From Eutreptiella sp. 'Long Island Sound 2002' (Eukaryota; Euglenozoa; Euglenophyceae; Eutreptiales; Eutreptiaceae), in NCBI GenBank assembly GCA_964036045.1, contig OZ038378.1, positions 168,007,975 through 168,071,974 on the forward strand: a stretch of 64,000 nt of DNA. The letters run 5' to 3'. Both the position numbers and the translations under genes were made by a program. The notes below the pieces were generated by a model. That model was given only the letters and a program-made list of their open reading frames with translations. It searched no databases and had not been told where the DNA came from. Below are positions 1 to 51,365 of this stretch, piece by piece (the stretch's first letter is position 1; each line of letters opens with the position of its first letter).

Positions 1-183
1 GTGTTTGCTGTGCCTCTCCTGCTGCTTGCTGCTGGTGTAGGGTTTCCTGCTGCTTGTTTTTGATGAGGAAAATGTTTTATTTGATGAAATACAACCAATC
101 CAGGATAGCCCAAGCCAGAGATAAGCAAGTAGAAGAGAATCAGGATCAAAGCATGAAGGGCTGCAGTGGGAACAGTGAAAGGT
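1..183 (-). repeat. Truncated copy of the E2-type LTR
   Basis: This stretch is nearly identical to 9066-9248 and to 40190-40372, which are the LTRs of the outer retrotransposon E2. Similarity stops at about position 180, where the LTR copies continue and this one passes into GC-rich DNA. It represents the end of the LTR that lies next to the primer binding site. The left part is cut off by the window, so I cannot say whether it belongs to another full element or is a broken solo LTR. Confidence 0.8.
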
Positions 184-2980: not shown

Positions 2981-5215
2981 TCACCTGCGCCGCCGCTTAT
3001 GTGGGGGCTGGGGCTGTGGCGGCGGCGGGTTGCGCTGGCGGTAGCGCCAGTGGGCGAGGGCGCTGTGCAAGGCCCGGGGGAGCCAGTTGTTGGCGTCCGC
3101 ATCCGTGATGCGGAGCACCGCTCCCCCTTCCAGGAAGGCCGGCCACGTCGGCTCCCTGTCGGGCCACGCCGCCCGGATCACTGACCTGAGGACCCTCTCG
3201 TGGTCCTCTGGGGCTGCCCACCCCCCCGGGGGTACCTCTCGGTTTCCTCCGTCTCTCCGGAGGAGCACGGCATCCAAGGGCCGGTTCCTCAACCCCCTGG
3301 TGGTCCCCTTGTTGGCCCAGCACAACCACCCGTACACCTCCCCCACCAGGGGGAGGGCCTCCTCCCCCAGAGGGTCCGGGACCGTGCCCCAGTCCCGGTC
3401 CCACCGCCGGGCCCCCTCTGCCCCTCGCGCCGGCTCCCCTCGCTGCCCCTGTGCCTGCGGCGCCGATGCTGCGCCCCGCCCCCCCTCCGCCGAGGCCATC
3501 CGCGCCGGCTCTGCTCTCGGCGCGGGGGGGGCTGGCTGGTGCTGGGGTCGTGAGGGTTGGGGGGGGACGAGCTCGCCGGCGTCAGGGTCGATGTTGTAGA
3601 GGTGGTGGTGGCGGTGGTGGTGGTGGTGGTGGGTGTGGTGCGCCGGCATCTGTTGGATGCCGGGGGGGATGCACCTCACCGGCTGCACGTCCGGCTGCGG
3701 GGGCACCCCGCTCCCCGCCCCCCTCCCTTCAGCCCGCCCTCCCCCCCGGGCTCCCATGCCCCGTCCCGCCTGTCCCTTGGGGCCCGCGGCGCCCTTGCCC
3801 TTGCCCTTGGGCCCCTTCCCAACCTCCTGCCCGTGCCGCGGGTCCCGCCCCCCATCCCCCACGCCCTGGCCCGCCCGCTCGCCCACCGCCCCTCGCCCCG
3901 CCCCCTGCGCTTGGGCTCCCTGCCCGCGCCCCTGCGCGCCCTTCCCGTGCCCTGGTCCCTTCCGGGCTCCCTGCCCTGAGTCGCGCCGTCCGCTGCCTGC
4001 GCTCTGCCCCCCCCCGCCGCTGCGCCCTTGCTCTCCGCCGCGCGTGCCCTGGCCTGCTCCTTGCGCGCGCTCCTGGGCACTTCCCCTGTCGCCTCCTGCC
4101 CCCCGCTCCGCGCTCCCGTGGTTGGCACGCAGCTCTGCCTGCGCGCCCTCCCCTCCTTCCTGGATCACGCGCCGGGCGTCCCCCTGTCTTTGCAGCTGCG
4201 GCAGCGTGACGCCCGGCGGCGAGCGCTTGGGCGCCGGGGGGCGGACGTGCCGCGCCCGCCCCGGGGGGAAGGGCTTGGGGGGGAACTGCTTGGGGGGGCT
4301 GGTGTGGGTGTGGGTGGGGTTGGCGTGGGCGCGGTACTTCGCGCTCTCCCTGCCCACTGCTGCTGCTGCGGCGGCCGCCGGCCAGGTGCCCGTGGTCCGT
4401 GCGGGGTCCGCCTCACGCTTTCGTGGCGTGCTGGGGGTCGCGGCGTGGCCGGCCGAGGCGATGGCGCGGCCCGCCAGGGCCGCGGTCGCAACCCCTCGCG
4501 CGCCCTCCTCACTCTCCTGTGCTGCTGTGGCGGCCGCCGGCGAGGTGCCCGTGGCCCGTGCGGGGTCCATCCCCCGCTTTCGCGGCGTGCTGGGGGTCGC
4601 GGCGTGGCCGGCCGAGGCGGTGGCGCGGCCCGCCGGGGCCGCGGTCGCAACTCCTCGCGCGCCCTCCTTGCTCTCCTCTGCTGCTGTGGCGGCCGCCGGC
4701 GAGGCGCCCGTGGCCCGTGCGGAGTCCTTTCCCCGCTTTCGCGGCGTGCTGGGGGTCGCGGCGTGGCCAGCCGAGGCGGTGGCGCGGCCCGCCGGGGCCG
4801 CAGTCGCAACCCCTCGCGCGCCCTCCTCGCTCTCCTCTGCGCCTGCGGCAGCCCTCGGCAATGCGCACGGTTCCTGCGCCGGGGCTACTCCCCGTGTCGG
4901 CGGCGTGCCGGGGGCCGCGGTCGGGGCCGCGGCGTGGCTCGCTGGGGCTGCGGTCTCCGCTTCCTGCGCGTCTGGGACCCCCTCCCGGGGCGGGGCGGCA
5001 GGGCTTGCTGCTTGGGCGGCGGGGGCGGTCACCTTGGCTGGCTCAGGCTCCCGGGCCGGCGGCGGCGGCCCGACCAGCACCGCCGCCTCCGCCAGCCTCC
5101 GCTCCTCGCGCTCCGCGAGGGTCTCCCTCGTCCACTCCGGGGAGGCGGGGGAGCGGGAGCGGGACGGGCGGTGGTGGCGGTCGTCCCGCTGGGGGGAGCC
5201 ATTGGAGTCTGCCAT
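2981..5215 (-). CDS. Unrecognised low-complexity protein, about 744 aa
   Basis: A long open frame on the minus strand. I start it at the ATG at 5215 (MADSNG...), which has G after the ATG, rather than the in-frame ATG at 5278, which lacks that context. The N-terminal two thirds is Ala/Pro/Gly/Arg-rich with three tandem 53-residue repeats (DNA 4368-4845), then a Gly/Gln/Arg-rich part and a histidine run (about 3590-3640). The last roughly 130 residues look more protein-like, with an even residue mix and Trp-containing segments, and end in a basic tail. I recognise no family. The T-poor coding strand favours chance open frames, so only the C-terminal part is persuasive. It could be a structural or nucleic-acid-binding protein of an unknown mobile element. 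Confidence 0.35.
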   Translation of the reverse strand: MADSNGSPQRDDRHHRPSRSRSPASPEWTRETLAEREERRLAEAAVLVGPPPPAREPEPAKVTAPAAQAASPAAPPREGVPDAQEAETAAPASHAAAPTAAPGTPPTRGVAPAQEPCALPRAAAGAEESEEGARGVATAAPAGRATASAGHAATPSTPRKRGKDSARATGASPAAATAAEESKEGARGVATAAPAGRATASAGHAATPSTPRKRGMDPARATGTSPAAATAAQESEEGARGVATAALAGRAIASAGHAATPSTPRKREADPARTTGTWPAAAAAAAVGRESAKYRAHANPTHTHTSPPKQFPPKPFPPGRARHVRPPAPKRSPPGVTLPQLQRQGDARRVIQEGGEGAQAELRANHGSAERGAGGDRGSAQERAQGAGQGTRGGEQGRSGGGGQSAGSGRRDSGQGARKGPGHGKGAQGRGQGAQAQGAGRGAVGERAGQGVGDGGRDPRHGQEVGKGPKGKGKGAAGPKGQAGRGMGARGGGRAEGRGAGSGVPPQPDVQPVRCIPPGIQQMPAHHTHHHHHHRHHHLYNIDPDAGELVPPQPSRPQHQPAPPAPRAEPARMASAEGGRGAASAPQAQGQRGEPARGAEGARRWDRDWGTVPDPLGEEALPLVGEVYGWLCWANKGTTRGLRNRPLDAVLLRRDGGNREVPPGGWAAPEDHERVLRSVIRAAWPDREPTWPAFLEGGAVLRITDADANNWLPRALHSALAHWRYRQRNPPPPQPQPPHKRRRR
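4368..4845 (-). repeat. 159-bp tandem repeat, three copies
   Basis: The landmark GCGTGCTGGGGGTCGCGG recurs at about 4426, 4585 and 4744, a constant spacing of 159 bp (53 codons). The copies are closely similar and stay in frame in the minus-strand reading frame, giving three copies of an Ala/Thr/Arg-rich peptide. An intact coding period could reflect selection, or just lack of time to diverge. Confidence 0.85.
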
Positions 5216-5278
5216 CACTGTTATCCTGATAGGCATGCGTGGTGGCAGGCGCGCCCTTCCCACTACCTCCTGGTGCAT

Positions 5279-6332
5279 CAGTGCCGTGCCGTGGGCAGTG
5301 CCGTGTGGTGCTCTGCGGGGGGGAGTGTTGGGTTGGGTGGGGTCAAGGCCTCGCCTGGTCGCCTACCCACGGTCCGCGCCGCCTTCCCTGCGGGACCCGA
5401 CTGGGCGGCCGTACCCGGGTGTCCAGTCACAAGGCCTACCGGACTGTTGACCGCCCCCAGACCCCGCGGTGGCGCTCGCGGGCGGGAGATGCCGCCGTGC
5501 CTGTGTGTATGTGCCCTTGTGTGTCTGGGGGGGGGGGGGGGCTGTGGCACACCTGCTTGCTCCATTGTTGTTCGGCGTTGGCGCACATGGCGCGGGGAAG
5601 TGTGTGCCTGGTGCTCCAGGCCCCGGCAGGGAGGCTGGAGAGCCTGACGCTGAGCCCGCCGGGGGAGATGTGGGCCTGGGCTCGCAACCTCCACGTCACA
5701 AGGACATGCTACCCAACCACTCCACGACTGCCTATTGGCACGGGAAGGCGGTGGTACGTGGCACGACTGGGGTCAGACCCGCACTCCTTGACTGCCTTAG
5801 GCACAGGTGGTGCTGCCTCGCGGGCTGGGTCCGGCTCCCACGGCCGAAGGCGTACCCTGGGCAGATGGAGGGGCACCAAGGCGCAGAGTGTGCTTCCCTG
5901 CCCTGGGTGCCACCAGTGCTGGCTGCACTGGCTGCGGCGCTACAGCCCGCGTAGACGAGGGGGCCCAGAGGGCACCACACCCGAATGGCCTCTCCGTTGA
6001 GGAAGGGGGGGGGGGGGGCAGGGGTCGGCTGGTGGCTGTCTGGCCTCCAGGGGTCACCCACAACTGCACCGGAGTGCACGGGGCTGTGCTGGCCTAGGCG
6101 TCTGTGATGAAGTTGGTGGGGCACGTGCACACCTGGAGGTTCCCTAGGCAGGCCGCTCAAGGGATACCCACAGCGGTCAAGCTGTGAGCCCTTCACAGCC
6201 TCCACTTTTTAGGCCCTGAGGGCGCCGACTCCGTGCACCCCTCCCGTCGGGGGCGCAGGCTGGGGGGGGGGGGTAGGGTGGTGGATGGGTCTACCTGTTC
6301 ACTTACGTGGGAGAGGAGGACCACCTGCTGGG
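5279..6332. other. Gap between the two minus-strand coding candidates
   Basis: Less extreme in composition than the flanks. I see only short overlapping frames with no domain, a G run near 5528 and another near 6007. Nothing here supports a gene, RNA or mobile-element end. Confidence 0.5.
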
Positions 6333-7800
6333 TTACCATGCGGGTCCCAGATCCCAACATACTTGTCGCTCGGCGTCCGCTCCCTGAGGGACCTGGATCA
6401 CCATGTGACGGCCTGCAGTGAGGGTGTGAGGGCATGCGGGGGGGGGGGGGGGGTGCTGGGCCTGCTTTCGGTCCGGCCCCATTTCGGTTGGGGGGGGTGG
6501 GGGCAGCAAAAGGTCTGCTCCCCTGTTTCCTGGTCCCCACGAGGAACCAGCCCACGGCTTGCACCCTCGCTTTGTGGTGGCTGAAATTTGGGCCGACAGA
6601 GCTGCGGGGGGGAGGGGGGGAGGGGGTGGGGGGCCGGCTGTGGCGTCAGCCCCGTAAGGCCTGGGGCCGGCGGCCATCCATCGGCATTGGGAGGGGAGGC
6701 GGGGGAGCCACGCGGCCCACGCGTCGCGCCACAGCTCCCAGTCTGGGGCGGGGCCCAGGGCCCTGGGCCCCGGGGGGTCGTCGGGTGGTATCGGGGGGAG
6801 CCGCACTAGGTGGACCCCCGTAACGGCGGTGACCTCCTGTGTTCGCAGGAAGGTGTGTACTCCGTCCCGCGCCGCGGGCGCCGGGAGGGGGGGGCGGGGT
6901 ACGGGCGCTGCCCCATAGAGGTGGGTGGGGGTGATCCCCAGGACCCGCCCCGGGTCCCCGCGGGTCGCGACGACGAGGAGGAGCAGGGGGGTGCCAGGGC
7001 ACTCTTGCCAGAGGACCTGCCCCCTGTGGTGGGCACCCCTGGTTCTGGAGAGGGGGGGGGACAGGTCTGAGTTAGCCCAGCCGCGGGGCGCGTGCGTCGC
7101 CGGCGGGAGGACGGGGCACCAAGCCGGCTCCCTGGGGAACGCCTCGCATACGATGGCATACGGGGGGGTAGGCCTGGTGCCGTCGCACACCGGGTTGGTC
7201 GGCCGGGGGCGGGCGGACGCCTCGTCCGCGCCTTCCACGAACACCGTGATCTTGCCCACCTCCAGGTCCTCGTCCGGTGGGTGTAGAAGGTGGAGCGCCG
7301 CATCCAGCTCGGACACTCCCCCCGGGTACGTGGCCCGCGCCTGGTTCAGGTACGGGGCCGCGTCCCCGGGGTAGCGCGTTCTGAGGGCGTGCAGCAGGGC
7401 CGGGGCGCTGCTGCGGAGGGACGTGGCAGACCCTGCTCCCGTCAGCCGCAGGGTGTCCCCCATGGACAGGGGCCGGCCCGACCGGTTGGACTCGCGCCAC
7501 TCCACCCAGTGCCCGTAGAGGGCCGCCTCCGAGCTGATGAGCCCCTGGCTGGACGGCGTTCACGATCCGGTGCATCGCCGGGAGCAGCGTAGGGGCCCCA
7601 ACTCCAATCAGGGCGCGGACGGCTGGGAGGGCGGTCTCGTTGAGGAAAGCCCTCGCACTGCCCGTCAGGTCACACCGTGCGGCAGCGTGCGCCTCGTGCG
7701 CCTCCGCCACCGCGTCCGCCACCAGGCCCCGGACGGCCGCCTCCTGCGCTTTGCTGCGGGCCCTGGTGTGTCCCGGCCCATCCCCCCGTCGGCGTGGCAT
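6333..7800 (-). pseudogene. Unrecognised GC-rich gene with a frameshift
   Basis: The ATG at 7798-7800 (MPRRRGDG...) lies exactly where ordinary-composition DNA gives way to the GC-rich block. The frame reads about 85 residues of helical, Ala-rich sequence, then loses sense. A second frame one nucleotide away continues convincingly from about 7545 (GLISSEAALYGHWVEWRES) and stays open to 6333. The switch lies at a run of four C (7542-7545 on the + strand), so a 1-nt homopolymer change, biological or from assembly, is the simplest explanation. The last 150 residues are proline-rich and may be non-coding. The middle part mixes hydrophobic and acidic residues like a folded protein, but I recognise no family. 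Confidence 0.4.
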
Positions 7801-15466: not shown

Positions 15467-17131
15467 TACCAGGAGTCCCTGGCCGCCGAAGCCGCTCAGG
15501 GCGCCAAGGGCGGAACCCCAGCCCCCAGTCCCCAACGGGCCAATGGCGGTCACCACCCCGGCTCCACCACCCTTGGCAACTACATCCAAGTCGCCAAGCA
15601 GACCAAGGCCAAGCCCCGTCCGCTGCTCCTGAGGCCCCAGCAGGCCCCAGCAGGCCCCAGCAGCGACGTGGAGTCGGCCCACCGCGGGAGGATGCCGGCC
15701 GACCAGGCCAGCTCCAGCAGCAGCGCCGCTCCCGCCCAAAGGGACGTGGCGCGCGCCTGTGAGCGCGCCTGTGGGGTGCCCTGCAATCTTCGGGTTGCCC
15801 GGCAACCGGCCACGCAGCAGAACGCTGCCGTGGAGGGCGCCGTCGGCATCGCCCATGAGGAGGCCACCGAGTGGGGCAGAGGCATGGACTACCACGCCTC
15901 GAAAGTGGCAGCCATCGCGGCCGGTCTTACGGCTGCGGCCGCCCATGAGGCAGTGGCTGCCCGGATCAGGGCAACCGACGAGGAAGCCCGCCGGACGCAG
16001 GAGGCCATTGCCTGCAAGGAGGCTGAGGTGAAGGCGCTGGAAGAGGCGCTTGCCCAAGAGAGGGCAAAGAAGGAGGCGGCGGAAAGGGCCCACGCCGATG
16101 CGACTGCCAAGGCCCAGGCGGACGCCGCCAAGAAGGACGCCATCGAGGCCACACGACGGAAGGTCGCTGAGGAGAGGGCCAAGAGGGAGGCGGAGCTGGC
16201 GGCGTTGGAAGCGCACAAGGCTCGGCTGCAGCAGGCCAGGGAAGCCGAGGCGGCTCGTGCCCGGGAGGAAGCCGAAGCGCGAGCTGCCGCAGCCACAGCC
16301 GCCGCAATGGAAGAGGCAGAGGCCAGACTCTGCCGCGAGACTCCCCCGGGAGGATCACGAGTGGAGACCCTTCGAAAGCTTTTCGAAGGGGACGCCTCCT
16401 CCAGGATGACGCTGGACGAGGCCGACACGGGCAGCAGTGGGAGCAGTGGCCCCACTGGCCACCGACGGAGGAAGGGTAAGGGGAAGACCCCCGAGAGGCC
16501 ACGGAGGCCAGCGGGCGGACACCCCCACGACAGTGACCCCTTCTTCACCGCCAGCGACGGGGATGAACGAGGCCGCCGACATCGCCAAGTGGTGGCTTGG
16601 ACGGGCGGAGGAGGCGGAGACGTCCCCATGGAACCGGAAGGTGAGGATGAGGATCTCCCTCCTCCCTACCGGAGCTCGGAGTCTTCCGAGACCGAGACGC
16701 CCAGGTGGGGTGACATGGACGAGGATGACGGCATGGACTTCGGCATCACGAAGAAGCGCCCATCCTCGGACCCACCGAGGCGACCCAGCGGGGACCCACC
16801 GGGACCCCCTGGCGGAGGACCATCAGGACCCCCTGGAGGACGCCCACCAAGTGGACCCCCTGGAGGCGGACCACCGGGCGGGGGAGGACCCCCTGGACCG
16901 GGCGGACCCGGCAGAGGCCCTCCTGGAGGACCCCCTGGAGACCCTGACGACCCACCAGGGAACGGCGACCCAGATACCACCTGGCAGTGGATTGTCTACC
17001 TCCGCAGGAGGGTCCAGTTCCCCGAGCGCGAGGTGGACACTGGCAAGGGCGAGATGACTCGCATCGCCGGGGTCGCCGCGCGCGCGCGCAGAGAGAGCTT
17101 GACATCGCCAGGGCCGAGACCAGGTCGCTGA
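15467..17131 (+). pseudogene. gag: E1 gag, coiled-coil and proline-rich segment
   Basis: This continues the same frame as 14993-15454 after the two TAG codons. The first half is a long Ala/Glu/Arg/Lys heptad-type coiled coil (DNA about 15930-16330). The second half is acidic and then Pro/Gly-rich, and includes a PPPY motif (16658-16669) of the type retroviral Gag proteins use to recruit ubiquitin ligases for budding; whether it works here is unknown. The frame derails at a GC/AG microsatellite (17075-17098), after which gag continues in the frame of 16987-19305. This is a frameshift in a slippage-prone repeat. Confidence 0.65.
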
Positions 17132-19305
17132 ACACGGTTATCAGCGGCCTGCAGCAGAGGCTGGACGCGCTGGAAGCCCGTGGGAGCGTCGGCAGCGACC
17201 ACCCACCCCTGGAGTCTTGCTCGTCGGACGACGGCTGGGGACCCGGACCAGCTCCAGGCAGACCTCACGCCCCCGGCGGAGCCCCCAGGAGTCGCCCCAG
17301 CGCCAGTGCCCCCTCTCTCACCGCCCCCTCTCACCACAGCGCGGGCCGCCGCAACGAGCGCGTGCCGCCCGGCAGTGGCAGTGAGGATTGGGGTGATGAG
17401 TGGCTCAGCGCGGAGTACCGCAACCGCCGTGCTCCACCGCGGACACCAGTACGCCCCCGGCGCCCCGCACCAGCCCTGGAGCCAATCCCAATGGCTGGTG
17501 GACGTTATGGTGGACTCAGGGATGAGGTCCCCAGAGGAGACGTGGAGTGGGATGTCGGCGAAGGTGAGGATCTGGACCTGGACCTGGAGGAGTTGGACAT
17601 CAGCCCGCCGCGTGGTGTACGACGGGAGGCCGCTGAACGCAGCCGCCGGCGCCGTGATGAGGATGCGTACATGGAAGGAGTCTGGCGTGAACATCTAGGT
17701 TCAGCGTACATGGAGGAACCGCGGCGTAGCAACAGGGATTCCATGGAGGAGATGGACGTGGCGGCCGTGGGAGTCCGTGGGCGAGGCCGATGGGAACCTC
17801 GGTCGACCTCGCGGCCGGCGTTCATGGTCTCTAAGGCCGCGGATGCCGCCGTGTGGGAAGACTTGAAGGACATCAAGCCCCCCATGTACGATGGCAACCC
17901 CCTCAACCTCGACCGCTTCTTGGAGAAGCTGGACGATTGGGGGCTGACCGTCACTGAAGACATGCCTCCCACGGATGCGGAGAAATATGTCTTCAGACGG
18001 TTCAGGTACCGCCTGCCGGAAGTGCTCGGAGAGCTATACTTCGTGGCGACCAAGGAGGGGAGAATCAAGATCCTCAAGGAAGCCAAAAAGTGGCTCAACG
18101 AGCAGGAGCGGGTGGACGCTCCGCAGGTGGCTGCCAAGCGGTGGAAGTCCATCAAGCTTCAGCATAATGGACGGGAGATTCGCCTACGGGACTGGCGAGA
18201 CTTCCCAGGGCATTACACCCTCCTCCGCCGCAACGTGGAGGATTGGAACGAGGGTGACGAGCAGGCTCGCCTGCTCTCCATGCTGCCGGAGGCATGGATC
18301 AAGAGGGTCACCAAGGAGGAATCCAAGCGGGCCAAGTCCAACCACACGGTCAAGATGATGCTCCCCAAAGAGTATCATACGAACGTGGTGGCTTGGACGA
18401 GGAAGAACGTGGCCCGGGATGTCAAACGGCACTCCCTGCGGAACGCTCTCCTCATCACCGTCTCGGGCGATCGCGAGAAGACCGCGATGTGGCGCCTTGA
18501 CGAGTGTGAGTTGAGCGGCCAGACCATCCGTCTGCAGGCCATCCCGGCGCGGATGAGCTGCGACGAGATCCTGGAGTGGGTTGGAGAGGAGGCGCTCAAG
18601 GAGTACCGGAACCTCCACCACACCCGCGGGTTGAGACCCGGCGACCGCGACGTCAACTACGTTGGCGAGGGACCTGGCGGAGAAGCTGCCATGGACCCAG
18701 CGGGAGCCGACGGCGACGAGACTCTCGTCGACGATGACGACGACGATGAGCCCGGCGAGGTGGCCGTTTGCGCCTTCGTGGCCAACAACCTGAGCGCGGG
18801 GAACAAACCGGGAAACTGGAAGCCCCTGCAGCAGGGTTGGCGGAAGAAGGAGAAGAGGGACCCTCGCTGCATTGGCGACCCTCCGCTGTCCTTTGGGGAG
18901 TTCATACGAGCTCACCCGCAGGGCTGTTTCGTGTGTTATGGGAGGAAGAAAGGCTTCAACCATGACCACCGAACATGCCCCACCCACAAGGCCGACACGG
19001 AGGCTTACAAGAAGGCGCACGGGTCGAAGAAGCGTGCGCCCGCGGGTATCCGGGAAGCCAAAGTGGAGGTCGACAAGGACGAGCTGGCCAAGCTGATGTC
19101 GTCGGTGGGGACCGAGTTGGCCAAGGAGATCCAGGAGATCAAGCGGAACTGGGTCCCCGGGTCGGACAACAAGAACAAGGAGAACAGCCAGAATGACCAC
19201 AACAAGGACAAGGACAAGAAGGGTAAGAAAGGGGGAAGGAAGAAGGGCGTCAACGAGGTTGATGCGGAGGAGAACACCCCTACTTCCACAACCGACGCCC
19301 CCTAG
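17099..19305 (+). pseudogene. gag: E1 gag, capsid and zinc-knuckle segment
   Basis: After the microsatellite frameshift the gag protein continues (ELDIARAETRSLNTVISGLQ...). A capsid-like helical region spans about 17827-18660 (WEDLKDIKPPMYDGNPLNLD...). It is followed by an acidic stretch, a zinc-knuckle variant CX2CX8HX4C (about residue 647 of the frame that opens at 16987) and a Lys-rich tail. The frame ends at TAG 19303-19305 and the protease frame follows in the same frame. The capsid shapes the virus-like particle and the knuckle binds the element RNA. Confidence 0.75.
19303..19305 (+). promoter_or_regulatory. E1 gag/pol stop codon, predicted readthrough site (UAG CGG)
   Basis: gag and the protease frame are in the same frame with only this UAG between them, and no other stop from 17099 to 21229. 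The same arrangement occurs in E2 and E3. This fits Gag-Pol synthesis by stop-codon suppression; no frameshift is needed. Confidence 0.55.
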
Positions 19306-21231
19306 CGGAGCCCCTGCAGCCAAGGGCCCCAGCTAGGGCGGTCGCAGGATGGTGACGTGGGAAGCGCCGAACCATCCCAGTCGGGAGTCGATAAACACAA
19401 AGGGACTGCCGCGGGCGGAAGGCCCGGTCAGGCACCCAGTCGCGGAGGCGGGGTGAGGGCAAGTGAAGGCACGAACCCTTGCACCTGTCCGTCCTTCGCG
19501 ACCAAGAATGTGTTTGATGTACTACAAGATCTTTCCAAGAGTATCGGAGGATCACCCGGACCGCAGCTGGATGCTGCAGATGGGCAGCCTGAGCCCATTG
19601 TCCACGACCTGCACCAGTCGCTTGTTGAGCTTCTGGAACGGCCGGAGATCCTGAGTTTGCACGCCGTGCGCCGTGTCGGTCGCGAGCGGCAGTTGCATCT
19701 TAAGGTCCGTGCCCTATGCGGGGAACTGGAAAAGGTTTTCGACGTGTTGGTCGACACGGGAGCTCAAGTCAGCTTGGTCAAGGCTGGCCTACTTCCACCA
19801 GAGTGTCTGACCGACAGTTGGAAACCTGTCAGGCTGAAGATGGCGAACGGCCAGTACATGGTGGGAGGCACGAAGGAAGCGGCGATCGGGCTGCAGTTCG
19901 TGAACCATCGTGAGCTGAGCCGCCCAGACCTCGGCAAGGAAATCCTCCTGCACGGTCGCTTCTACGAGGCCGAGATGGACTGGGACATGATCGTCGGGTA
20001 CGACTTCATGATGGACACGGACTCCGGCGTCCTCCCGGCCCAGGCCTCCATGACCCTGTACCAGGACGACCAGCTCTCGTGGCTTTCGTCACCTGAGCAC
20101 CATGTGGAATGCCAATGGATCCACCCCGAACGCAATCAGCTCGAAGTGGCCGCGCTGGACACTGAGCCAACTGGTCCTGCAAACCAGGAGTACGGCGTAA
20201 TGCCGGAAGTGGCGAGCCGAGTTGTCGCGGACTTGGGAGCTTCGGATCTGGCCCTGGATGCGTTCTCTTCAGGAACCTCCGCCCATCTTCGGGTTTGTGA
20301 GAAGTACTGGAGCGCCCAGGGCTCCGTGTGGAAGAAGCACTGGGGTCCGCATCAGGGATTGATGTGGATCCATTGCCCCCGTTGGGACATTCCAAGAGCG
20401 ATAGCAAAGATTCGCAAGGACCGCTCCAAGGCAGTGCTGGTTCTACCTATGGGATGCACCGAGGAGGAAAGTACCCGACATTGGGTAGCCTCATTGACCA
20501 ACATGACCTTAAACAAGGTCGTCCTACCGGCTGGAGAGAGTGTCTATCAGGACGCTAAGGGACAGCCCATGCCACCCCAGGAATGGCCAACGGAATTCCA
20601 CTATGTGGATGGGGGCCTTGATCAGGCCGACACCACGGACTTCGTGTGTGTCAACCGCATCGTAACGGAGCCTTGGAGGCAATGCTTTGCGGTTCCCCCT
20701 GTTGACATCGGAGAATCAGAAGACCCCCTCACTGAAGGGGAGTTGGATCTGGTTCGGGGGTATATGGATCAGCCCTTTCACGACTGGGGAAACCAGCGTG
20801 AGGGCAAAGGCCAGGACAAAGCCTGGTGGGAAGTGGACTCGATCGTCTCTGGTTCCTACGATGGAGATACCTTCGTAAGGAGGGTACTGGACCACCTGTC
20901 CAGCCAGGACGAGCCAATCGGGGGTAACCCACCCACCTACGGCGATCTATTCCGAGGCAAGACCAGAGATGGCCCTTTGGGCCACCTGGGAAGACCGCCT
21001 GAGCCGAAGACGAGCGGAGTAGCTACCCCTCAAGTAAGCTCCGTGGTTCAAGTGCCCGGAAAAGCCAAGGCGGAGTCCGACGATTGCCCCAAGATTCAGG
21101 CATTGAGGGCCAGGCTGAAGCAGAAGTATGGGGATACCTTCTTCAGCGGAAAGCCTGTGTTTCCTCAACCGGTGCGTGGACCGTATGGCGAGGCCAAGAT
21201 ACGACCGAGCTGGTGGGGGAGGGAACATTAG
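19306..21231 (+). CDS. pol: E1 protease and Dam-like module, truncated pol
   Basis: Open in the gag frame past the UAG. An aspartic protease with the motif VLVDTGAQVSLV lies at about 19745-19780. Downstream is a module similar in order to E2 and E3: LDAFSSGTSAHL, then WIHCPRWDIPRAIAKIRKDRSKAVLVLP, corresponding to the NPPF-type segment and following helix/strand of Dam-like methyltransferases, but with HCPRW in place of NPPF. The frame then enters the linker before RT and stops at 21229-21231, where the 5.4-kb foreign block begins, cutting the polyprotein. Confidence 0.7.
   Translation, partial: RSPCSQGPQLGRSQDGDVGSAEPSQSGVDKHKGTAAGGRPGQAPSRGGGVRASEGTNPCTCPSFATKNVFDVLQDLSKSIGGSPGPQLDAADGQPEPIVHDLHQSLVELLERPEILSLHAVRRVGRERQLHLKVRALCGELEKVFDVLVDTGAQVSLVKAGLLPPECLTDSWKPVRLKMANGQYMVGGTKEAAIGLQFVNHRELSRPDLGKEILLHGRFYEAEMDWDMIVGYDFMMDTDSGVLPAQASMTLYQDDQLSWLSSPEHHVECQWIHPERNQLEVAALDTEPTGPANQEYGVMPEVASRVVADLGASDLALDAFSSGTSAHLRVCEKYWSAQGSVWKKHWGPHQGLMWIHCPRWDIPRAIAKIRKDRSKAVLVLPMGCTEEESTRHWVASLTNMTLNKVVLPAGESVYQDAKGQPMPPQEWPTEFHYVDGGLDQADTTDFVCVNRIVTEPWRQCFAVPPVDIGESEDPLTEGELDLVRGYMDQPFHDWGNQREGKGQDKAWWEVDSIVSGSYDGDTFVRRVLDHLSSQDEPIGGNPPTYGDLFRGKTRDGPLGHLGRPPEPKTSGVATPQVSSVVQVPGKAKAESDDCPKIQALRARLKQKYGDTFFSGKPVFPQPVRGPYGEAKIRPSWWGREH
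20847..21205 (+). repeat. 359-bp direct repeat, left copy
   Basis: Identical to 26648-27006 except for one base (G at 21082, A at 26883). It is part of the E1 pol coding sequence and flanks the 5.4-kb block 21206-26647. It is far too long for an integrase target duplication. Confidence 0.9.
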
Positions 21232-21843
21232 ATATGACTGGTGAGGGACATCAAGAATGATTCACACATCGATGGCTCTTGACAAAGTGAAATCCGCTTG
21301 CAAGTGAACCCCATCACCACGAGGCCCACTTCCAAGGCTTTTTGGACTTCTGAGGGGCCAAAATGCCCCAAAATGGGCTCAAAAGGGGCTCATTTCACCC
21401 GTATGTGCACCCCAAATGGTCTAGGATGAGGTAGGACCCTAACGTCGTCCCTCTCGTCGTCTAACTAGCCGTAGGCGCAAAGAAAAACGCGTCGCGAGCA
21501 GCGCGTAAAACTCGAAAAGTTTTTCTAAGCCGCCGCGTCCCTTCGCCCTGCTTCCCTGCCTTTTCTTTCCTTCTCCATGCACCTACCTCCCCTCCCTCCT
21601 GCCCCCCCTCAACCCTTTTCATCAGCTTGGGGGACCGGCCCTGGGGGAAAAGCGGTCAACCCCTAGCAAGCAAGACCACCATCTTCGCGGTCGCGTGGCA
21701 GCACGTAAGTCAGAAATTTCACCTTGGTATTGCTGCTTGCCTGCGTTCGTGACTTGCGTGGAGTTTGATTTTCTAAAGAGAAACATTTTAATTTTCGGTT
21801 TTCAGAAAGTTTTCAAAGGCACGGAAAAACGGCAGGGGTTTTT
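21206..21843 (+). other. Start of the 5.4-kb block inside E1 pol
   Basis: Ordinary-composition non-coding DNA with no recognisable gene. GTAAGT at about 21704 and a pyrimidine-rich TTTTCAG at about 21798-21804 look like a splice donor and acceptor, but without a coding context this is weak. Confidence 0.5.
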
Positions 21844-23679
21844 AGCAAAAGAAAAGAGGACAAAAGGAAAAACAAACACCAGCAGCGCAGACAGCCGCAC
21901 AGCACAGCCAACCAGCACAGCACCGCAGGGCAGCACGGCACCGCAGGACACGGCACAGGGCGCAGGACACCACAGGACAACACACAGCACAGCAAGACAC
22001 CACGACACACCAGAGCAGCACCACCACACCGCAGAACGCCCAGGGAGACACCACAACGCACAGGGACACGCCACAGCACGAGGCACCAACAACAGCGCAG
22101 ACCACACGGGCGCCGCACGACAGGCCGCAGGAGGGCAAAGCAAACACAAACAGCACCGCAAAACGACAGCAGAGCACGACAGCACAGCACCACACGACAG
22201 CACAGCGCCACAGCACACGACACAGCGGGGCAGGGCACCACAGCCAGCACAACAAGGCACCGCAGCGCACAGAGCGGAGAAGACAGGGAACGCACAGCAC
22301 GAGGAAAAGAGCACCACAGCACGCAGACACCACCACCGGGCAAAAAACAGCACAGCCAACCAACAGCACAACACAGCACAGCACGACAGCCCACAGGAGG
22401 GCAAAGCAAGCCCCAACAGCACCGCAACACGACAGCAGACCACAACAGCACAGCACCACGCGACAGCACAGCACCACAGAACACGACACAGGAAAGCAGG
22501 GCACCACCGCAAACCACACCAACCACAGGGAAGCAGACCACGCGGCCAGACAGGGACACCGACACCGCAACACGCCACCAGCAGACAACCACGGGCCACC
22601 AGACCCAGCAGCGCACCACGGCACACCACAGGAAACAGCACAACACACAGCAGCGCACCACAGCACCAGGCGCCAGCAACAGCACGCACCACACGGACAG
22701 CACAACGCGAGCGCACCAGCACAGCGAAGCACAGCACCGCACAGAGCGGAGAGGACAGGGAATGCACAGCACAGCACCCAGGGACACACACAGCACAAAG
22801 CAGAGCGGCGAACAACAGCAAGCACCACCGCGCCACGACAAAACACACACAGCACAGAGCACACAGCGCGGGGGAACACCGCAAAACACAGCGCCGCAGA
22901 GCACAGGGCCCAAGGGCGACGGGCAGCGCCAGAGGGCACGGCGCAACAAGCAGCGGCACCAAACGAACGCAACACAGCACAGGACAGCACAACACCGGAG
23001 GACACAACGCGCAGCAGCGCGGCGCAGCACCGCACACAGGGACGCACAGCACAACACAGCACACGGCACACAGCAGCGAGCGGGAGCGACGAAAACCGCG
23101 AGACACAAAGGGGGGGGGGGGCGGCAACCACCAGGGAGCAGCCAACAGCCAGGCGGAAAGCACGAAAGAGGGACGAGCGCACGGAGAGCCGAGAAGCGGA
23201 AGGCCAACAAAGCAAACAACGCACAGCGCCGAGGCCCAGGGCACCCGGGGCCGGAAACCAGAGAAACCCGGAGACAACGGGGGCACAAAGGGGAAGAAGA
23301 AGAAGGAAAAAAAAAAAAGAAAGAAAAAACAAGAACGCACCAAGCAGGAGCGACGAAAACCGCGAAACACAAAAGGGGAGGGGGGGGGGGGGCAACCACC
23401 AAAGAGCAGCCAACGGCCAGGCGGGAGAAACACACGAGGCGCGAGCGCACGGAGAGCCAGGCAGCAGGAGGCCGAGAAAAACAACCAAAACACAGCGCCA
23501 AGGCAACGAGGAACGGCAAGGGCAGCGAGAGACAGGGGGGCAACCCCAGCCCGGAGGGGGCCAAGCAAAGCAGAAAGACAAAGCGGCCAAAGGCAAAGGT
23601 GAGGCGCACCAGAACGCGCCCGGGAGGCCGGCCCGCCCGACCCGGCCAAGCAAAGCACGCACACGCACACCAGCCGCCG
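21844..23679 (+). other. T-free tract: 1836 nt with two T residues
   Basis: The + strand consists of A, C and G only, apart from T at 22763 and 23600. Words such as CAGCAC and ACAGCA dominate. Diverged internal duplications are visible (about 22128 against 22391, and about 23075 against 23345), suggesting degenerate units of roughly 265-270 bp. The copies differ at many positions, yet none of those changes introduces T. The 635-codon frame over this tract uses only amino acids whose codons lack T (no Phe, Leu, Ile, Met, Val, Tyr, Cys or Trp), so it is not evidence of a protein. The minus-strand frames of about 600 codons are equally artefactual. Confidence 0.9.
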
Positions 23680-23887
23680 TCCGGATGGACGAGTGCGCGC
23701 CCGGAGGGTACCCAGCCCCTGCCCGCTACGAACAGCCGCCGTCCGGATGGATGAGTGCGCGCCCGGAGGGTACCCAGCCCCTGCCGGCTACGAACAGCCG
23801 CCGTCCGGATGGACGAGTGCGCGCCCAGAGGGTACCCAGCCCCTGCCGGCTACGAACAGCCGCCGTCCGGATGGACGAGTGAGCGCC
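23671..23887 (+). repeat. 62-bp minisatellite, about 3.5 copies
   Basis: Units start with CAGCCGCCGTCCGGATGG at 23671, 23733, 23795 and 23857, a spacing of 62 bp with few differences. It directly follows the T-free tract. Confidence 0.9.
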
Positions 23888-23943
23888 CCGCAGCGACGCC
23901 CCGCACAGCAACACACCACACGCAACCCAACGCACAGCACACA

Positions 23944-26075
23944 GAGCGAGCACACCGGAGAACAGGAGCCAAGTGGCCCAGGCCACCGCACAGGCAAAAC
24001 AACACACACAGCGGGCAGACCGGTGAACAGGAGCCGGGAGGCCCAGGACACCGCACACGCAAAACAACACACAGAGCGGGCACACCGGTGAACAGGAGCC
24101 GGGAGGCCCAGGACACCGCACACGCAAAACAACACACCGAGCGGGCACACCGGTGAACAGGAGCCGGGAGGCCCAGGACACCGCACACGCAACACAACAC
24201 ACAGAGCGGGCACACCGGTGAACAGGAGCCAGGAGGCCCAGGACACCGCACACACAAAACAACACACAGAGCGGGCACACCGGTGAACAGGAGCCGGGAG
24301 GCCGGGGACACCGCACACGCAAAACAACACACCGAGCGGGCACACCGGTGAACAGGAGCCGGGAGGCCCAGGACACCGCACACGCAACACAACACACAGA
24401 GCGGGCACACCGGTGAACAGGAGCCGGGAGGCCCAGGACACCGCACACGCAAAACAACACACCGAGCGGGCACACCGGTGAACAGGAGCCGGGAGGCCCA
24501 GGACACCGCACACGCAACACAACACACAGAGCGGGCACACCGGAGAACAGGAGCCGGGAGGCCCAGGACACCGCACACGCAGAACAACACACAGAGCGGG
24601 CACACCGGTGAACAGGAGCCGGGAGGCCCAGGACACCGCAAACGCAAAACAACACAACGAGCGGGCACACCGGTGAACAGGAGCCGGGAGGCCCAGGACA
24701 CCGCACACGCAACACAACACACGGAGCGGGCACACCGGTGAACAGGAGCCGGGAGGCCCAGGACACCGCACACGCAAAACAACACACCGAGCGGGCACAC
24801 CGGTGTACATGAGCCGGGAGGCCCAGGACACCGCACACGCAACACAACACACCGAGCGGGCAAGCCGGAGAACAGGAGCCGGGAGGCCCACGACACCGCA
24901 CACGCAAAACAACACACAGAGCGGGCACACCGGTGAACAGGAGCCGGGAGGCCCAGGACACCGCACATGCAAAACAACACACCTAGCGGGCACACCGGAG
25001 AACAGGAGCTGAGAGGCCCAGGACACCGCACATGCAAAACAACACACCTAGCGGGCACACCGGTGAACAGGAGCCGGGAGGCCCAGGACACCGCACACGC
25101 AACACAACACACAGAGCGGGCACACCGGTGAACAGGAGCCGGGAGGCCCAGGACACCGCACACGCAAAACAACACACCGAGCGGGCACACCGGTGAACAG
25201 AAGCCGGGAGGCCCAGGACACCGCACACGCAACACAACACACCGAGCGGGCGCACCGGTGAACAGGAGCCGGGAGGCCCAGGACACCGCACATGCAAAAC
25301 AACACACCTAGCGGGCACACCGGTGAACAGGAGCCGGGAGGCCCAGGACACCGCACATGCAAAACAACACACAGAGCGAGCACACCGGTGAACAGGAGCC
25401 GGGAGGCCCAAGACACCGCACACGCAAAACAACACACAGAGCGGGCACACCGGTGAACAGAAGCCGGGAGGCCCAGGACACCGCACACGCAACACAACAC
25501 ACCGAGCGGGCACACCGGTGAACAGGAGCCGGGAGGCCCAGGACACCGCACATGCAAAACAACACACCTAGCGGGCACACCGGTGAACAGGAGCCGGGAG
25601 GCCCAGGACACCGCACATGCAAAACAACACACCTAGCGGGCACACCGGTGAACAGGAGCCGGGAGGCCCAAGACACCGCACACGCAAAACAACACACAGA
25701 GCGGGCACACCGGTGAACAGAAGCCGGGAGGCCTAGGACACCGCACACGCAACACAAAACACCGAGCGGGCGCACCGGTGAACAGGAGCCGGGAGGCCCA
25801 GGACACCGCACACGCAAAACAACACACCGAGCGGGCACACCGGTGAACAGGAGCCGAGAGGCCCAGGACACCGCACACGCAACACAACACACCGAGCGGA
25901 CACACCGGTGAACAGGAGCCGGGAGGCCCAGGACACCGCACACGCAAAACAACACACCGAGCGGGCACACCGGTGAACAGGAGCCGGGAGGCCCAGGACA
26001 CCGCACACGCAAAACAACACACCGAGCGGGCACACCGGTGAACATGAGCCAGGTGGCCCAGGACACCGCACACAC
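23944..26075 (+). repeat. 65-bp minisatellite, about 33 copies
   Basis: A head-to-tail array whose core is GAGCGGGCACACCGGTGAAC followed by GGAGCCGGGAGGCCCAGGAC and a CA-rich segment; the unit length is 65 bp. Most copies differ at a few positions (for example CACACGCAAAAC or CACATGCAAAAC). The + strand has about one T per unit, continuing the bias of the T-free tract. Open frames through the array on the minus strand, up to 485 codons, result from the lack of stop codons. There are no unique spacers, so it is not a CRISPR array. Confidence 0.95.
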
Positions 26076-26647
26076 GTAGGGCGGCCGGGGGACAGGAAAG
26101 AACCAACACTCCATGGGTCGGACACACTGGGGCGACCCAGCCGACCCACCGGGCCAGTGGCAGGAGCGGTACTCCAAGGCCACTGGTCCGAGCCCGGCCA
26201 GGCTGCATCGGGGACCATGGCAAACGTCACCCGGAGCCATGGAAGCAACCGGTGACAGGCGAGCCGGTACACAGTCCAGGAGGGGGTCGCCTGCCAAGCG
26301 AAGCGGCCCCGCAACTCAAGCCACAAGAGTGAGGCGGTCGTACCGTAGACAAGCGGGAGCAATACCCCTCGTGGTGAGAGATACTCCACACGGCTGGGCA
26401 GCCCCCAGAGCTGCCGCCCAAAGGAGGGGGCATGTGGCCCTACTCATGGACACATGTGGGGACACCCTCCCGCCTGGGACACATGGACCGGGTGGCCGCG
26501 ACAATGCCTTCCCAAGCACATGCGGGAGCGGCTCAAGAGGCACCTAACATAGGGCAGTGGGAGGGACACGACATCCCCTTGGTAAGACCTTCTTCCTGCA
26601 TCGTCAAAGGAGGCATCCCGTGCTCCCGAAGATACCCCCCCCCCACC
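26076..26647 (+). other. End of the 5.4-kb block inside E1 pol
   Basis: GC-rich non-coding DNA that ends in a C run (about 26635-26644) right before the second copy of the 359-bp repeat. No gene or RNA is seen. Confidence 0.5.
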
Positions 26648-27006
26648 CTCTGGTTCCTACGATGGAGATACCTTCGTAAGGAGGGTACTGGACCACCTGT
26701 CCAGCCAGGACGAGCCAATCGGGGGTAACCCACCCACCTACGGCGATCTATTCCGAGGCAAGACCAGAGATGGCCCTTTGGGCCACCTGGGAAGACCGCC
26801 TGAGCCGAAGACGAGCGGAGTAGCTACCCCTCAAGTAAGCTCCGTGGTTCAAGTGCCCGGAAAAGCCAAGGCGGAGTCCGACAATTGCCCCAAGATTCAG
26901 GCATTGAGGGCCAGGCTGAAGCAGAAGTATGGGGATACCTTCTTCAGCGGAAAGCCTGTGTTTCCTCAACCGGTGCGTGGACCGTATGGCGAGGCCAAGA
27001 TACGAC
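26648..27006 (+). repeat. 359-bp direct repeat, right copy
   Basis: The copy of 20847-21205 that continues into the reverse transcriptase coding sequence. The pair differs at one base. Confidence 0.9.
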
Positions 27007-27975
27007 TGAAGCAGGACCCCCGTGTGTATCGGCACCGGGAGTTTGCCCTGAGGGGCGAGAGGAAAGAGGCCATGGAGAAGATCCTCCGTGACTTCATCCA
27101 GAGAGGCTGGCTCGAGCCGTGCCAATCCGAATGGGCCTCTCCGTGCTTCGTCGTCCCCAAGAAGGTTGCCGGTGAGTGGCAGCTCGTGGTGGACTACCGC
27201 GGCCTGAACGCCCAAACGCAGCACGACAGCTATACGCTGCCCCTCATTGAGGACATGCTGCAAAAACAACACCGGCGGAGGATCTTCACGGTGATTGACC
27301 TGAAACATGGTTATCATCAGATGCCTCTAGCCGAGGAGTCCCGTGCCTGCACAGCCATGAGCACTCCACTTGGGCCTCTCCAGTGGAAGGTGATGCCCAT
27401 GGGCGTTACCAACGGCAATGCGGCTTTTCAGCAGATGCTGGAGAACCTGCTTGAGCCGGTGCGCGACTGTGCGGACCCATTCGTGGACGACGTGATCATC
27501 GCGTCCCGGGACCCCAGTATGAGCTACGAGGAGCTCCTGGAGGCACATGAAAGGGACGTCACTCGAGTGCTCGACCTTCTGGTTCGGCACAAACTCACGG
27601 GCAGCAGTGACAAGGCCACCATTGCGGTAAGCGAGGTGGTCTTCGCTGGCCACGTAGTCGGGAACGGGCAGCGAAAGCCCATACCTGGCAAGGTGGCTGC
27701 GATCGAGCACTGGGAGAAGCCCAAAACGGTGTCTGAGCTACGGGCGTATCTGGGGTTCTGCAACTACTACTCGGGGTATATCAAGATGTATGCCGAGTAT
27801 GCAGCCCCCATGACCACCATGCTCAAGGGCAACCGTGAGGAGACCAAGAAGGGGTCCAAGAAGGCGCTGGTCTGGAATGAAGAGTCCGACCGTGCCTTTG
27901 AGGGGATGAAGCAGGCGCTGCTATCCGCAGTGGGTCTGCACCTCGTGGATCCCAACCGAGGGTTCGTCCTGCGAG
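26778..27975 (+). pseudogene. pol: E1 reverse transcriptase (RNase H lost)
   Basis: A clear Ty3/gypsy-type RT. The conserved blocks are in order: WASPCFVVPKK, LVVDYRGLN, FTVIDLKHGYHQMPL, PLQWKVMPMGVTNG, the active-site FVDDVIIAS (residues 235-238 of this frame; YVDD or YIDD is more usual) and the thumb with LRAYLGFCNYYSGYIK. It breaks off at about 27975, just where the RNase H motif should begin (after GFVLR), and the next bases belong to the integrase C-terminus in another frame. RNase H and the integrase zinc and catalytic domains are therefore deleted. The N-terminus here is only the 359-bp duplicate, so the frame lacks its natural start. Confidence 0.8.
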
Positions 27976-28575
27976 GAATTCTTCGCGCGGCAAGAGCAAA
28001 CGGCGCGGGACATCCGCCAGCAGCGCGAGAAGGAGCATGCTGAGCGTCAGAAGTCCGCCCGGAGCTCGACAGCGCAGAAGTTCAGGGTGGGAGACCCGGT
28101 GTGGGTGATCAGACCCCGCCCTATGGGCACCCACCGCACCAAAACCTGGTTCACACCCGGAGAGGTGGTCCGCAGGATTGGTGAGGACACCTACCGCATC
28201 AAGGTGGGTCACGGACAGTTCCGGGAGCGCCACGAGAGTCGACTCCGTGTGCGGGAACCCGACCTCCGTGGCCAGCATGTGTCCCTGAGCTCTGCCGCAC
28301 ATGATGCTGATTCAGACGACGACTATGCTGAGCAGGACGACTATACAGTCGAGAAGATCCTTGCTCAGCGTCCGAAAGCCTCGGCACCCGGAGGTCTGGA
28401 GTTCAAGGTTCGTTGGCGAGGCTATGGGCCGTCCCACGACACCTGGGAACCCGTCTCCTCGTTCGTGCCGCGGGTCAATACTCCCTTCATGGAGTACATC
28501 CGCAAGCACAAGACCAAGATCCATGTTTCGGACTTGGCAGCACTCACCCGGGCGATTGCAGCCAGGGGCGCCTGA
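27976..28575 (+). pseudogene. pol: E1 integrase C-terminus with chromodomain
   Basis: Directly after the internal deletion the frame reads EFFARQEQTARDIRQQ..., then an integrase C-terminal barrel (FRVGDPVWVIRP...), an acidic linker and a chromodomain (YTVEKILAQRP...FKVRWRGYGPSHDTWEP, about 28342-28480), ending at TGA 28573-28575. Chromodomains of this kind direct chromoviral integration to marked chromatin. Here the catalytic core is missing, so the protein cannot act on its own. Confidence 0.8.
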
Positions 28576-40587: not shown

Positions 40588-41119
40588 TGAAAGTGCTGCC
40601 CTGGGTCGTTGATGGTGCCGGAGGGCTCGGGGCCGGCAAGACCAGTGGGGCAGGCACGCGAGGAGTCTCCCTGAACGTTGCTATTAGGGGTGGAACCGGA
40701 TACTCGGACACCAACGGAGGCGAGAGCAGCAACAACTGAAGCAAGGTCCATGCTGATTGTGGTCCGGCAGAAAATCCCAGTCTATGAAGAAAATTGATGC
40801 GGATTATTCTGAATACATCTGAGTGTCCAAAACTGTCTGAAAAGATTTAAATAATCCAATTATGTAAAAATGTTTGGCCGATCTGGCCCGCCAGCGCGCG
40901 TCAGCGGCAAATGGCAATTCCAGCTAAAATAGCGGAACGCGGCGGATTTACGGGAAATGGACTGCGGAATCAAATCCGGCATATCAGAAATATATAGGAA
41001 ATATCCTGTGACTGAGCTGCGAGGCGGCAATTCCGCCGAAGCAAAGAAAATGACCAAAATGTAGCCAATCTGGGCAGAATGTCTGAAAATCTGAGCAGAT
41101 GGGGCTAGCCGCACTTACA
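40588..41119 (-). repeat. E3 3' LTR, 532 bp
   Basis: Same length as 50834-51365 and almost identical. It carries a stranded copy of the first 50 or so gag codons, because gag begins inside the LTR. Confidence 0.95.
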
Positions 41120-50997: not shown

Positions 50998-51365
50998 GCT
51001 GATTGTGGTCCGGCAGAAAATCCCAGTCTATGAAGAAAATTGATGCGGATTATTCTGAATACATCTGAGTGTCCAAAACTGTCTGAAAAGATTTAAATAA
51101 TCCAATTATGTAAAAATGTTTGGCCGATCTGGCCCGCGAGCGCGCGTCAGCGGCAAATGGCAATTCCAGCTAAAATAGCGGAACGCGGCGGATTTACGGG
51201 AAATGGACCGCGGAATCAAATCCGGCATATCAGAAATATATAGGAAATATCCTGTGACTGAGCTGCGAGGCGGCAATTCCGCCGAAGCAAAGAAAATGAC
51301 CAAAATGTAGCCAATCTGGGCAGAATGTCTGAAAATCTGAGCAGATGGGGCTAGCCGCACTTACA
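50834..51365 (-). repeat. E3 5' LTR, 532 bp
   Basis: TG...CA in element sense. A TATA-like TATATAT (51236-51242) lies about 240 nt upstream of the gag ATG and would place the transcript start near 51210, leaving a short leader before gag. Confidence 0.95.
51236..51242 (-). promoter_or_regulatory. TATA-like box in the E3 LTR
   Basis: TATATAT in element sense, the only strong TATA match upstream of the gag start in this LTR. No start site is proven. Confidence 0.4.

What the first reader, a model, noticed from the sequence alone, without database searches (positions are those of the whole stretch)
21844..23679. A 1.8-kb tract with almost no T on one strand
Seen: 1836 nt with T only at 22763 and 23600. 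Internal duplicates (about 22128 against 22391, and 23075 against 23345) have diverged at many positions, yet none of the changes produces T. That is far beyond ordinary GC skew and argues for a strand-specific process or constraint acting after duplication. Inference: candidates are one-way conversion such as adenosine deamination on the complementary strand or its RNA, selection for a U-free transcript, or R-loop formation. It continues, weaker, into the 65-bp minisatellite.
Basis: partly seen in the sequence, partly recalled or inferred. Interest (0 to 1): 0.9.

Follow-up and report, generated by a model that had tools for sequence, protein, structure and literature searches.

The report
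Retroelement with an almost uracil-free RNA
The T-free tract is part of a high-copy, recently active mobile element in a large eukaryotic genome; copies appear to be born almost T-free and to pick up Ts only after inserting, so something seems to remove or reject T while the element copies itself.

Summary
Confirmed: window 21844-23679 (1836 nt) has T only at 22763 and 23600. It is one module of a dispersed mobile element (about 21206-26647 here, no Pfam domain) inserted in a Ty3-type retroelement and flanked by a 359-bp direct duplication. Related copies end in (CTAC)n, one is 5'-truncated, and flanking duplications are about 250 to 908 bp; one young copy fetched as a test showed at least 679 bp, 100% identical; L045 showed none. 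This fits target-primed reverse transcription with long target-site duplications; no partner enzyme was found. In 15 copies T is almost only private: 75 shared variant sites include 45 G/A, no C>T, and three G/T. The adjoining 5' and 3' modules keep and exchange T, and a host tubulin gene has ordinary T. Best reading: source copies are held near U-free, probably by selection on the RNA or its DNA hybrid; module-limited T removal or mutational bias is not excluded. Artefact and simple seed expansion are rejected as full explanations.

The parts
20847..21205 (+). upstream copy of the 359-bp flanking direct duplication (target-site duplication) inside the host Ty3-type element
   Evidence: matches 26648-27006 with 1 difference in 359
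21206..21843 (+). 5' module with ordinary T content (155 T of 638); shared with L044 from about 21431 on
21704..21843 (+). intron-like stretch: GTAAG at 21704 (also in the four other aligned copies) and GGGGTTTTTAG ending at the T-free boundary; splicing not shown
   Evidence: inference
21844..23679 (+). T-free module 1 (2 T in 1836 nt)
22086..22241 (+). internal duplicate, first copy (second copy 22356-22507)
23073..23235 (+). internal duplicate, first copy (second copy 23337-23504)
23671..23888 (+). 3.5 copies of a 62-bp repeat
23934..26073 (+). T-poor minisatellite (VNTR), 65-bp unit x 33, 47 T in 2140 nt; L023 carries a different unit of about 188-195 bp at this place
26074..26647 (+). 3' module with more T (67 T of 574); differs from the 3' module of the (CTAC)n copies apart from a short structured motif
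26413..26470 (+). motif CCGCCCAAAGGAGGGG with predicted stem, present in both kinds of 3' module
26648..27006 (+). downstream copy of the flanking duplication
16987..19305 (+). long ORF (no Pfam match) of the interrupted retroelement, gag-like by position only
26778..28043 (+). reverse-transcriptase ORF of the interrupted element (PF00078); a separate ORF with a chromodomain (PF00385) follows at 28087-28575; Ty3-type is inferred from the two together

Best explanation
The tract is the larger T-free module of a dispersed mobile element of roughly 5 to 6 kb with the plan: ordinary 5' module, T-free module, T-poor VNTR, second T-free module, ordinary 3' module with a structured motif and (CTAC)n tail (the window copy carries a different VNTR and 3' module). 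Shown: many copies, recent activity, a shared 3' end, one 5'-truncated copy, long flanking duplications, and near absence of inherited T with T gained as private changes. Inferred: it moves as RNA by target-primed reverse transcription, using another element's enzyme. Inferred and less certain: source copies are kept near U-free by selection on the sense RNA, or on its hybrid with an A-free DNA strand, within sharp module limits. Possible advantages, recalled and untested: an unstructured RNA (only G-C pairs can form) with few splice-donor, poly(A) and stop signals, escape from U-dependent cleavage or small-RNA processing, and absence of weak rU:dA pairs in RNA-DNA hybrids.
For: Dispersed family: (39 near-full-length matches at 92-100%, one of them the window); L023 was found independently of any similarity search. 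Recent activity: the 3' module has 1421 first-look candidates, and all 40 scored are 100% (rounded) over 433 nt, on many chromosomes. Retrotransposon-like ends: L023, L044, L045 and one of two L046 copies end in (CTAC)n; L023 starts inside the tract. Flanking duplications 359 bp (window), 908 bp (L023), about 250-266 bp (L044) and, in one young copy fetched to test the expectation, at least 679 bp at 100% beginning at the 3' end. T state: 15 copies have 2-10 T each; shared variant sites against the consensus G>A 24, A>G 21, C>A 9, C>G 6, G>C 6, A>C 6, G>T 2, T>G 1, C>T 0; singletons include C>T 30, G>A 73. Tree parsimony: 0 C>T (2 changes involving T) among 50 internal-branch changes, 27 C>T (53 involving T) among 326 terminal. 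Expected inherited T gains about 17 from the singleton ratio, 3 seen, Poisson p 3e-5. Other modules: shared differences involving T are 0 of 37 in the tract and 64 of 109 in the 5' module (window, L044, L045, two L046 copies), and 6 of 8 in the 3' module (L023 in place of the window) (Fisher p 7e-12, 3e-6). Private T counts are of the size the flanking-duplication clock gives: window 0.6 expected, 1 seen; L023 1.9 expected, 4 seen. Host alpha-tubulin, codon position 3: T 23.9%, A 6.9%. Low structure of the sense RNA: -0.15 to -0.31 kcal/nt against -0.41 to -0.46 for five gag/pol stretches. No Pfam domain in the window copy on either strand, or in L044 on the sense strand.
Against: T is not strictly barred: inherited T at 22108 (8 of 15), 23120 (2), 23376 (5) and 23600 (15 of 15); shared G>T is about as frequent as expected (3 against 4.3), so the strong deficit is in C>T, which fits a mutational asymmetry as well as selection. 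Changes were polarised against the consensus or a midpoint-rooted tree, not an outgroup. The 14 copies compared were the best hits of a similarity search, so T-richer relatives may be under-represented. The 5' module differs between subfamilies far more than the tract and may have been exchanged, which weakens it as a control; the 3' module has only 8 shared sites; module 2 has 2 of 16 with T. L045 shows no flanking duplication in the stretch held. The aligned 5' ends keep the intron-like stretch, so a spliced RNA is not what was copied there. No RT-bearing partner, no transcript, no expression data. One host gene family only. Low structure follows from composition: z is between -1.1 and 1.4 in five of six sense pieces, -3.2 in one.
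Confidence: 0.5

Rival explanations
1. A mutational process of the copying cycle, limited to this module, removes T or never makes it: for example deamination of A in the first cDNA strand or an RNA-DNA hybrid (T to C on the sense strand), with G/A and A/G changes arising on cDNA or RNA.
For: Shared changes are mostly A/G (45 of 75 sites) and lack C>T, while shared G>T is not depleted: a pattern a mutational bias would give. In the sampled genome T-poor stretches tend to be C-rich (correlation of AT and GC skew -0.35 over 400 windows; -0.33 over 380 without L023).
Against: The process would have to stop within a base or two of a TTTTT run at the 5' end and spare the 3' module, which would be copied first. 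T at 23600 is kept in 15 of 15 copies and a T recurs in most 65-bp units. No consistent neighbour context of the remaining T across other T-poor segments.
Confidence: 0.2
2. T-free seed expansion: the module grew from T-free microsatellite words (CAGCAC, ACAACAC) and simply has not had time to gain T.
For: The first 1.2 kb is rich in such words, and similar T-poor microsatellites occur elsewhere (L011 2997-3310, L027 5498-5824).
Against: Internal duplicates differ at 14-23% of aligned sites and the other 14 copies differ from the window copy at about 4-5%, with plenty of A/G change yet almost no inherited T; 23073-23679 does not look built of these words.
Confidence: 0.12
3. Genome-wide transcription-associated loss of T from the coding strand, of which this tract is the extreme.
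For: AT skew varies more than GC skew in 400 sampled windows (SD 0.25 and 0.15; 12 against 0 beyond 0.7), and stretches in L015 and L019 are also strongly skewed. But 8 of those 12 windows are L023, the copy of this element.
Against: An alpha-tubulin gene has T of 24% at third positions and 29% downstream; the 5' and 3' modules of the element itself are not T-free.
Confidence: 0.1
4. Assembly or base-calling artefact.
For: None found.
Against: Copies on many chromosomes with private changes, ordinary flanks, and private T gains of the size expected from flanking-duplication age in the two copies tested.
Confidence: 0.01

Closest known systems
Non-LTR retrotransposons (LINEs) and their non-autonomous passengers, mobilised by target-primed reverse transcription
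   Same: Fixed 3' end with a short simple-repeat tail, a 5'-truncated copy, flanking target-site duplications, no LTRs; T-poor, A-rich sense strand in the direction of L1 (42% A and 21% T in mammals, 43% and 24% in lizard; passage of PMC7140322).
   Different: T of 0.1-0.5% in the module is far outside that range; duplications of about 250-908 bp (1447 bp in a second family) are at or beyond the long end of the 'several to several hundred nucleotides' stated in a passage of PMC1291365; no RT or other Pfam domain was found in the element.
SVA / LAVA (VNTR composite retrotransposons of hominoids)
   Same: Long, non-autonomous composite with a central VNTR and exchangeable end modules (abstract openings of PMC4432496 and PMC7353768 in the search listing).
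   Different: No Rfam family in the window at gathering scores, simple-repeat or C-rich end instead of poly(A), T-free modules; a different organism.
Host-hypermutated retroelements (APOBEC, ADAR; recalled, not tested here)
   Same: Strand-specific change tied to the copying cycle is one rival explanation.
   Different: Here the pattern is inherited by copies that multiplied, is sharply module-limited, and T returns after insertion.

Membership tests
Non-LTR retrotransposon (TPRT-mobilised, non-autonomous) | constant 3' end with simple-repeat or poly(A) tail at the junction | tested here: met
   (CTAC)n in L023, L044, L045 and one of two L046 copies; same in the C9 copy; the window copy ends differently (C-rich)
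Non-LTR retrotransposon (TPRT-mobilised, non-autonomous) | target-site duplications | tested here: met
   window, L023, L044 and C9 copy; not found for L045; L046 not assessed
Non-LTR retrotransposon (TPRT-mobilised, non-autonomous) | 5' truncation of copies | tested here: met
   one clear case, L023; frequency not measured
Non-LTR retrotransposon (TPRT-mobilised, non-autonomous) | an autonomous partner with RT and the same 3' end | not tested
SVA / LAVA | central VNTR | tested here: met
SVA / LAVA | Alu-like or SINE-derived parts, poly(A) tail | tested here: not met
   no Rfam hit in the window at gathering scores, none relevant up to E 3 in the element; tail is (CTAC)n or C-rich
LTR retrotransposon | long terminal repeats as the element's own ends | tested here: not met
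   the flanking repeats are pieces of the target element's own sequence and differ between insertions
Protein-coding gene | indels in threes, third-position excess of variation, known domains | tested here: not met
   26 of 101 indels are multiples of 3; variable sites 120/105/106 by position; no Pfam family

The most novel reading that the evidence does not exclude
A retroelement lineage under selection against a single RNA base: its transmitted RNA must be nearly free of U over about 2.5 kb for it to copy, survive or prime, and the same (unknown) machinery leaves target duplications of hundreds of bases to over a kilobase, with T-poor templates evolving repeatedly among its passengers (a second family here, without detectable similarity, is T-poor and has a 1447-bp duplication).
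Probability: 0.35. Interest if true: 0.88.

Novelty: new variant of a known kind. Interest (0 to 1): 0.72.

Why it matters
If selection holds an RNA nearly free of one base for thousands of nucleotides, something in the cell or in the copying machine treats U as a liability; the many copies of different age make that testable from sequence alone. The long duplications would also mean that second-strand cleavage can lie hundreds of bases from the first nick.

Tried and rejected
Rejected or left behind: assembly artefact (many copies with private changes); pure seed expansion; protein coding; host-wide transcription-linked T loss, on one gene family only; a neighbour-context signature of T loss shared by T-poor segments, none consistent; known RNA families; Pfam domains in the second T-poor family and in samples L015, L017 and L019: none. 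Paper searches for long target-site duplications with minisatellites (0 papers), T-poor or T-depleted retroelements, long duplications and hypermutation: no listed title or abstract opening described a T-free retroelement; I saw only listings, abstract openings and the passages, and the longer result lists were capped. The organism was not identified; the best solved-structure match of its alpha-tubulin is 6u42_2, recalled to be Chlamydomonas.

Limits: the 14 compared copies (L030-L043) are the 14 best non-self hits of 38 near-full-length ones listed. In the clock check only two copies were tested. The internal-branch p value of 2e-10 printed assumes equal A/G and C/T opportunity and is not used. 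The 5' end of L044's duplication is fuzzy (alignment). The young C9 copy is one copy, chosen because both its tract and its 3' module had been located; no written prediction was logged beforehand.

Full report
OBSERVATION. Window 21844-23679 holds 1836 nt with T only at 22763 and 23600. Outside it the longest T-free run in the window is 129 nt, and in 20 evenly placed 10-kb samples of the genome the only longer one (394 nt, L023) is a copy of the same element.

WHAT IT IS. The window belongs to a 2.28-Gb genome with eukaryotic genes. The tract lies in a 5.44-kb block (about 21206-26647) that interrupts a retroelement with an RT ORF at 26778-28043 and a chromodomain ORF at 28087-28575 (Ty3-type by inference) and is flanked by a 359-bp direct duplication with one difference. 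L023, one of the evenly placed samples, contains a second insertion of the same family in a different retroelement: it begins inside the tract (at the equivalent of 22979), carries a different VNTR, and is flanked by a 908-bp duplication. A whole-genome search gave 4191 first-look candidates, of which 40 were scored; 39 of 42 listed matches (one is the window) are nearly full length at 92-100%. The 3' module gave 1421 candidates; all 40 scored matched at 100% (rounded) on many chromosomes, so the family has been active very recently. No Pfam domain was found in the window copy on either strand or in L044 on the sense strand.

ANATOMY. Comparison of the window, L023, L044, L045 and the inverted pair in L046 gives: an ordinary 5' module (T 23% over five copies); a sharp switch to T-free sequence after a TTTTT run (TTTTTAG in 13 of 15 copies); T-free module 1 of about 1.8 kb; a T-poor VNTR whose unit differs between subfamilies; T-free module 2 of about 750 bp (1.2% T); and a 3' module of about 440 bp (14.5% T) ending in (CTAC)n. 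The window copy has another 3' module but shares a structured motif (8 of 44 predicted pairs show a two-sided change, counted in five sequences of which only the window is strongly diverged). A GTAAG donor-like site and the TTTTTAG acceptor-like site bound an intron-like stretch; splicing is not shown. The tract does not behave as coding, and no Rfam family fits.

LONG DUPLICATIONS. Flanking duplications are 359 bp (window), 908 bp (L023) and about 250-266 bp (L044). I then took one young copy with known positions of tract and 3' module (C9:30332178 and 30336160-30336592) and fetched 950 bp at each end: 679 bp repeat exactly, starting at the end of the (CCTA)n tail; the duplication may continue, as the left piece ended there. 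L045 shows none in the stretch held. A second T-poor family, without detectable similarity to this one (window 182-7800, minus strand, 5.8% T in 182-5117), has a 1447-bp duplication.

WHEN T IS LOST OR BARRED. In 15 aligned copies (window plus the 14 best hits) T counts are 2-10 per about 1800 nt. Sites where a variant from the consensus is shared by two or more copies: G>A 24, A>G 21, C>A 9, C>G 6, G>C 6, A>C 6, G>T 2, T>G 1, C>T 0. Singletons: G>A 73, A>G 56, C>A 36, C>G 35, C>T 30, A>C 27, G>C 21, G>T 13, A>T 10, T>A 1. Inherited T exists at four places: 22108 (8 of 15), 23120 (2), 23376 (5), 23600 (15); 23120 and 23376 are in or beside G runs. By the singleton ratio about 17 inherited T gains were expected and 3 are seen (p 3e-5), the deficit being in C>T and A>T rather than G>T. 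On a midpoint-rooted tree, 0 of 50 internal changes are C>T against 27 of 326 terminal ones; changes involving T are 2 of 50 against 53 of 326. Three flanking duplications, which should have diverged only after insertion, show A/G 23 and C/T 17 of 56 differences. So T enters freely after insertion and hardly at all before.

WHERE. Shared differences that involve T are 0 of 37 in the tract and 64 of 109 in the 5' module (window, L044, L045, both L046 copies), and 2 of 16 in module 2 and 6 of 8 in the 3' module (the same with L023 in place of the window). The 5' module may have been exchanged between subfamilies, so the 3' module is the cleaner, if small, control. A host alpha-tubulin gene has T 23.9% against A 6.9% at third positions and 29% T downstream.

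HOW IT MAY WORK. Tail, truncation and duplications point to target-primed reverse transcription by an unidentified partner. The module-limited absence of T in transmitted copies is best read as selection on a nearly U-free RNA or on its hybrid with DNA, but because the deficit is concentrated in C>T while shared G>T is near expectation, a mutational bias of the copying cycle confined to the module stays open. The sense RNA is weakly structured, as expected from a composition in which only G-C pairs can form. Avoidance of splice donors, poly(A) signals, stop codons, U-dependent cleavage or small-RNA processing, and weak rU:dA pairs are recalled possibilities, none tested.

WIDER PICTURE. AT skew in the sampled genome varies more than GC skew (400 windows: SD 0.25 and 0.15; beyond 0.7: 12 and 0), but 8 of those 12 windows are L023, the copy of this element; the other four are in L015 and L019. 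No neighbour-context signature links the T-poor segments. L1, the A-biased case met in the literature here, has 21% T in mammals and 24% in lizard (passage of PMC7140322).

VERDICT. A real and strange feature of a recently active element of a known general kind; the base-specific constraint is the new part, and its cause is undecided.

Noticed in passing
window 182-7800 (minus strand) with L029: A second T-poor insert flanked by a 1447-bp direct duplication (97.8%); 3' end with short ATCAAAC-like repeats, gene-like GT..AG stretches with C-only pyrimidine tracts, no Pfam domain.
   Followed up: partly
L046 132-4691 and 4951-9472: Two copies of the element form a 4.57-kb inverted pair with 5' ends facing (96.9%).
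   Followed up: no
L019 2404-3378 and 8175-9146: Two copies of the window 182-7800 family with 3' ends facing each other.
   Followed up: no
window 51735-56002; also L025, L029: 85-bp satellite array, 50 units here, also found in L025 and just upstream of the window.
   Followed up: no
window 40588-41119 and 50834-51365: 532-bp repeats (99.6%) that look like the LTRs of a nested retroelement.
   Followed up: no
L047-L049 (C21:17.30 Mb): Near-identical alpha-tubulin genes in tandem about 5.6 kb apart, with an uninterrupted reading frame.
   Followed up: partly
window 21844-26073 and VNTRs of L023 and L045: Most retained T are followed by G (UG in RNA); could hint at which U contexts are tolerated.
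   Followed up: partly
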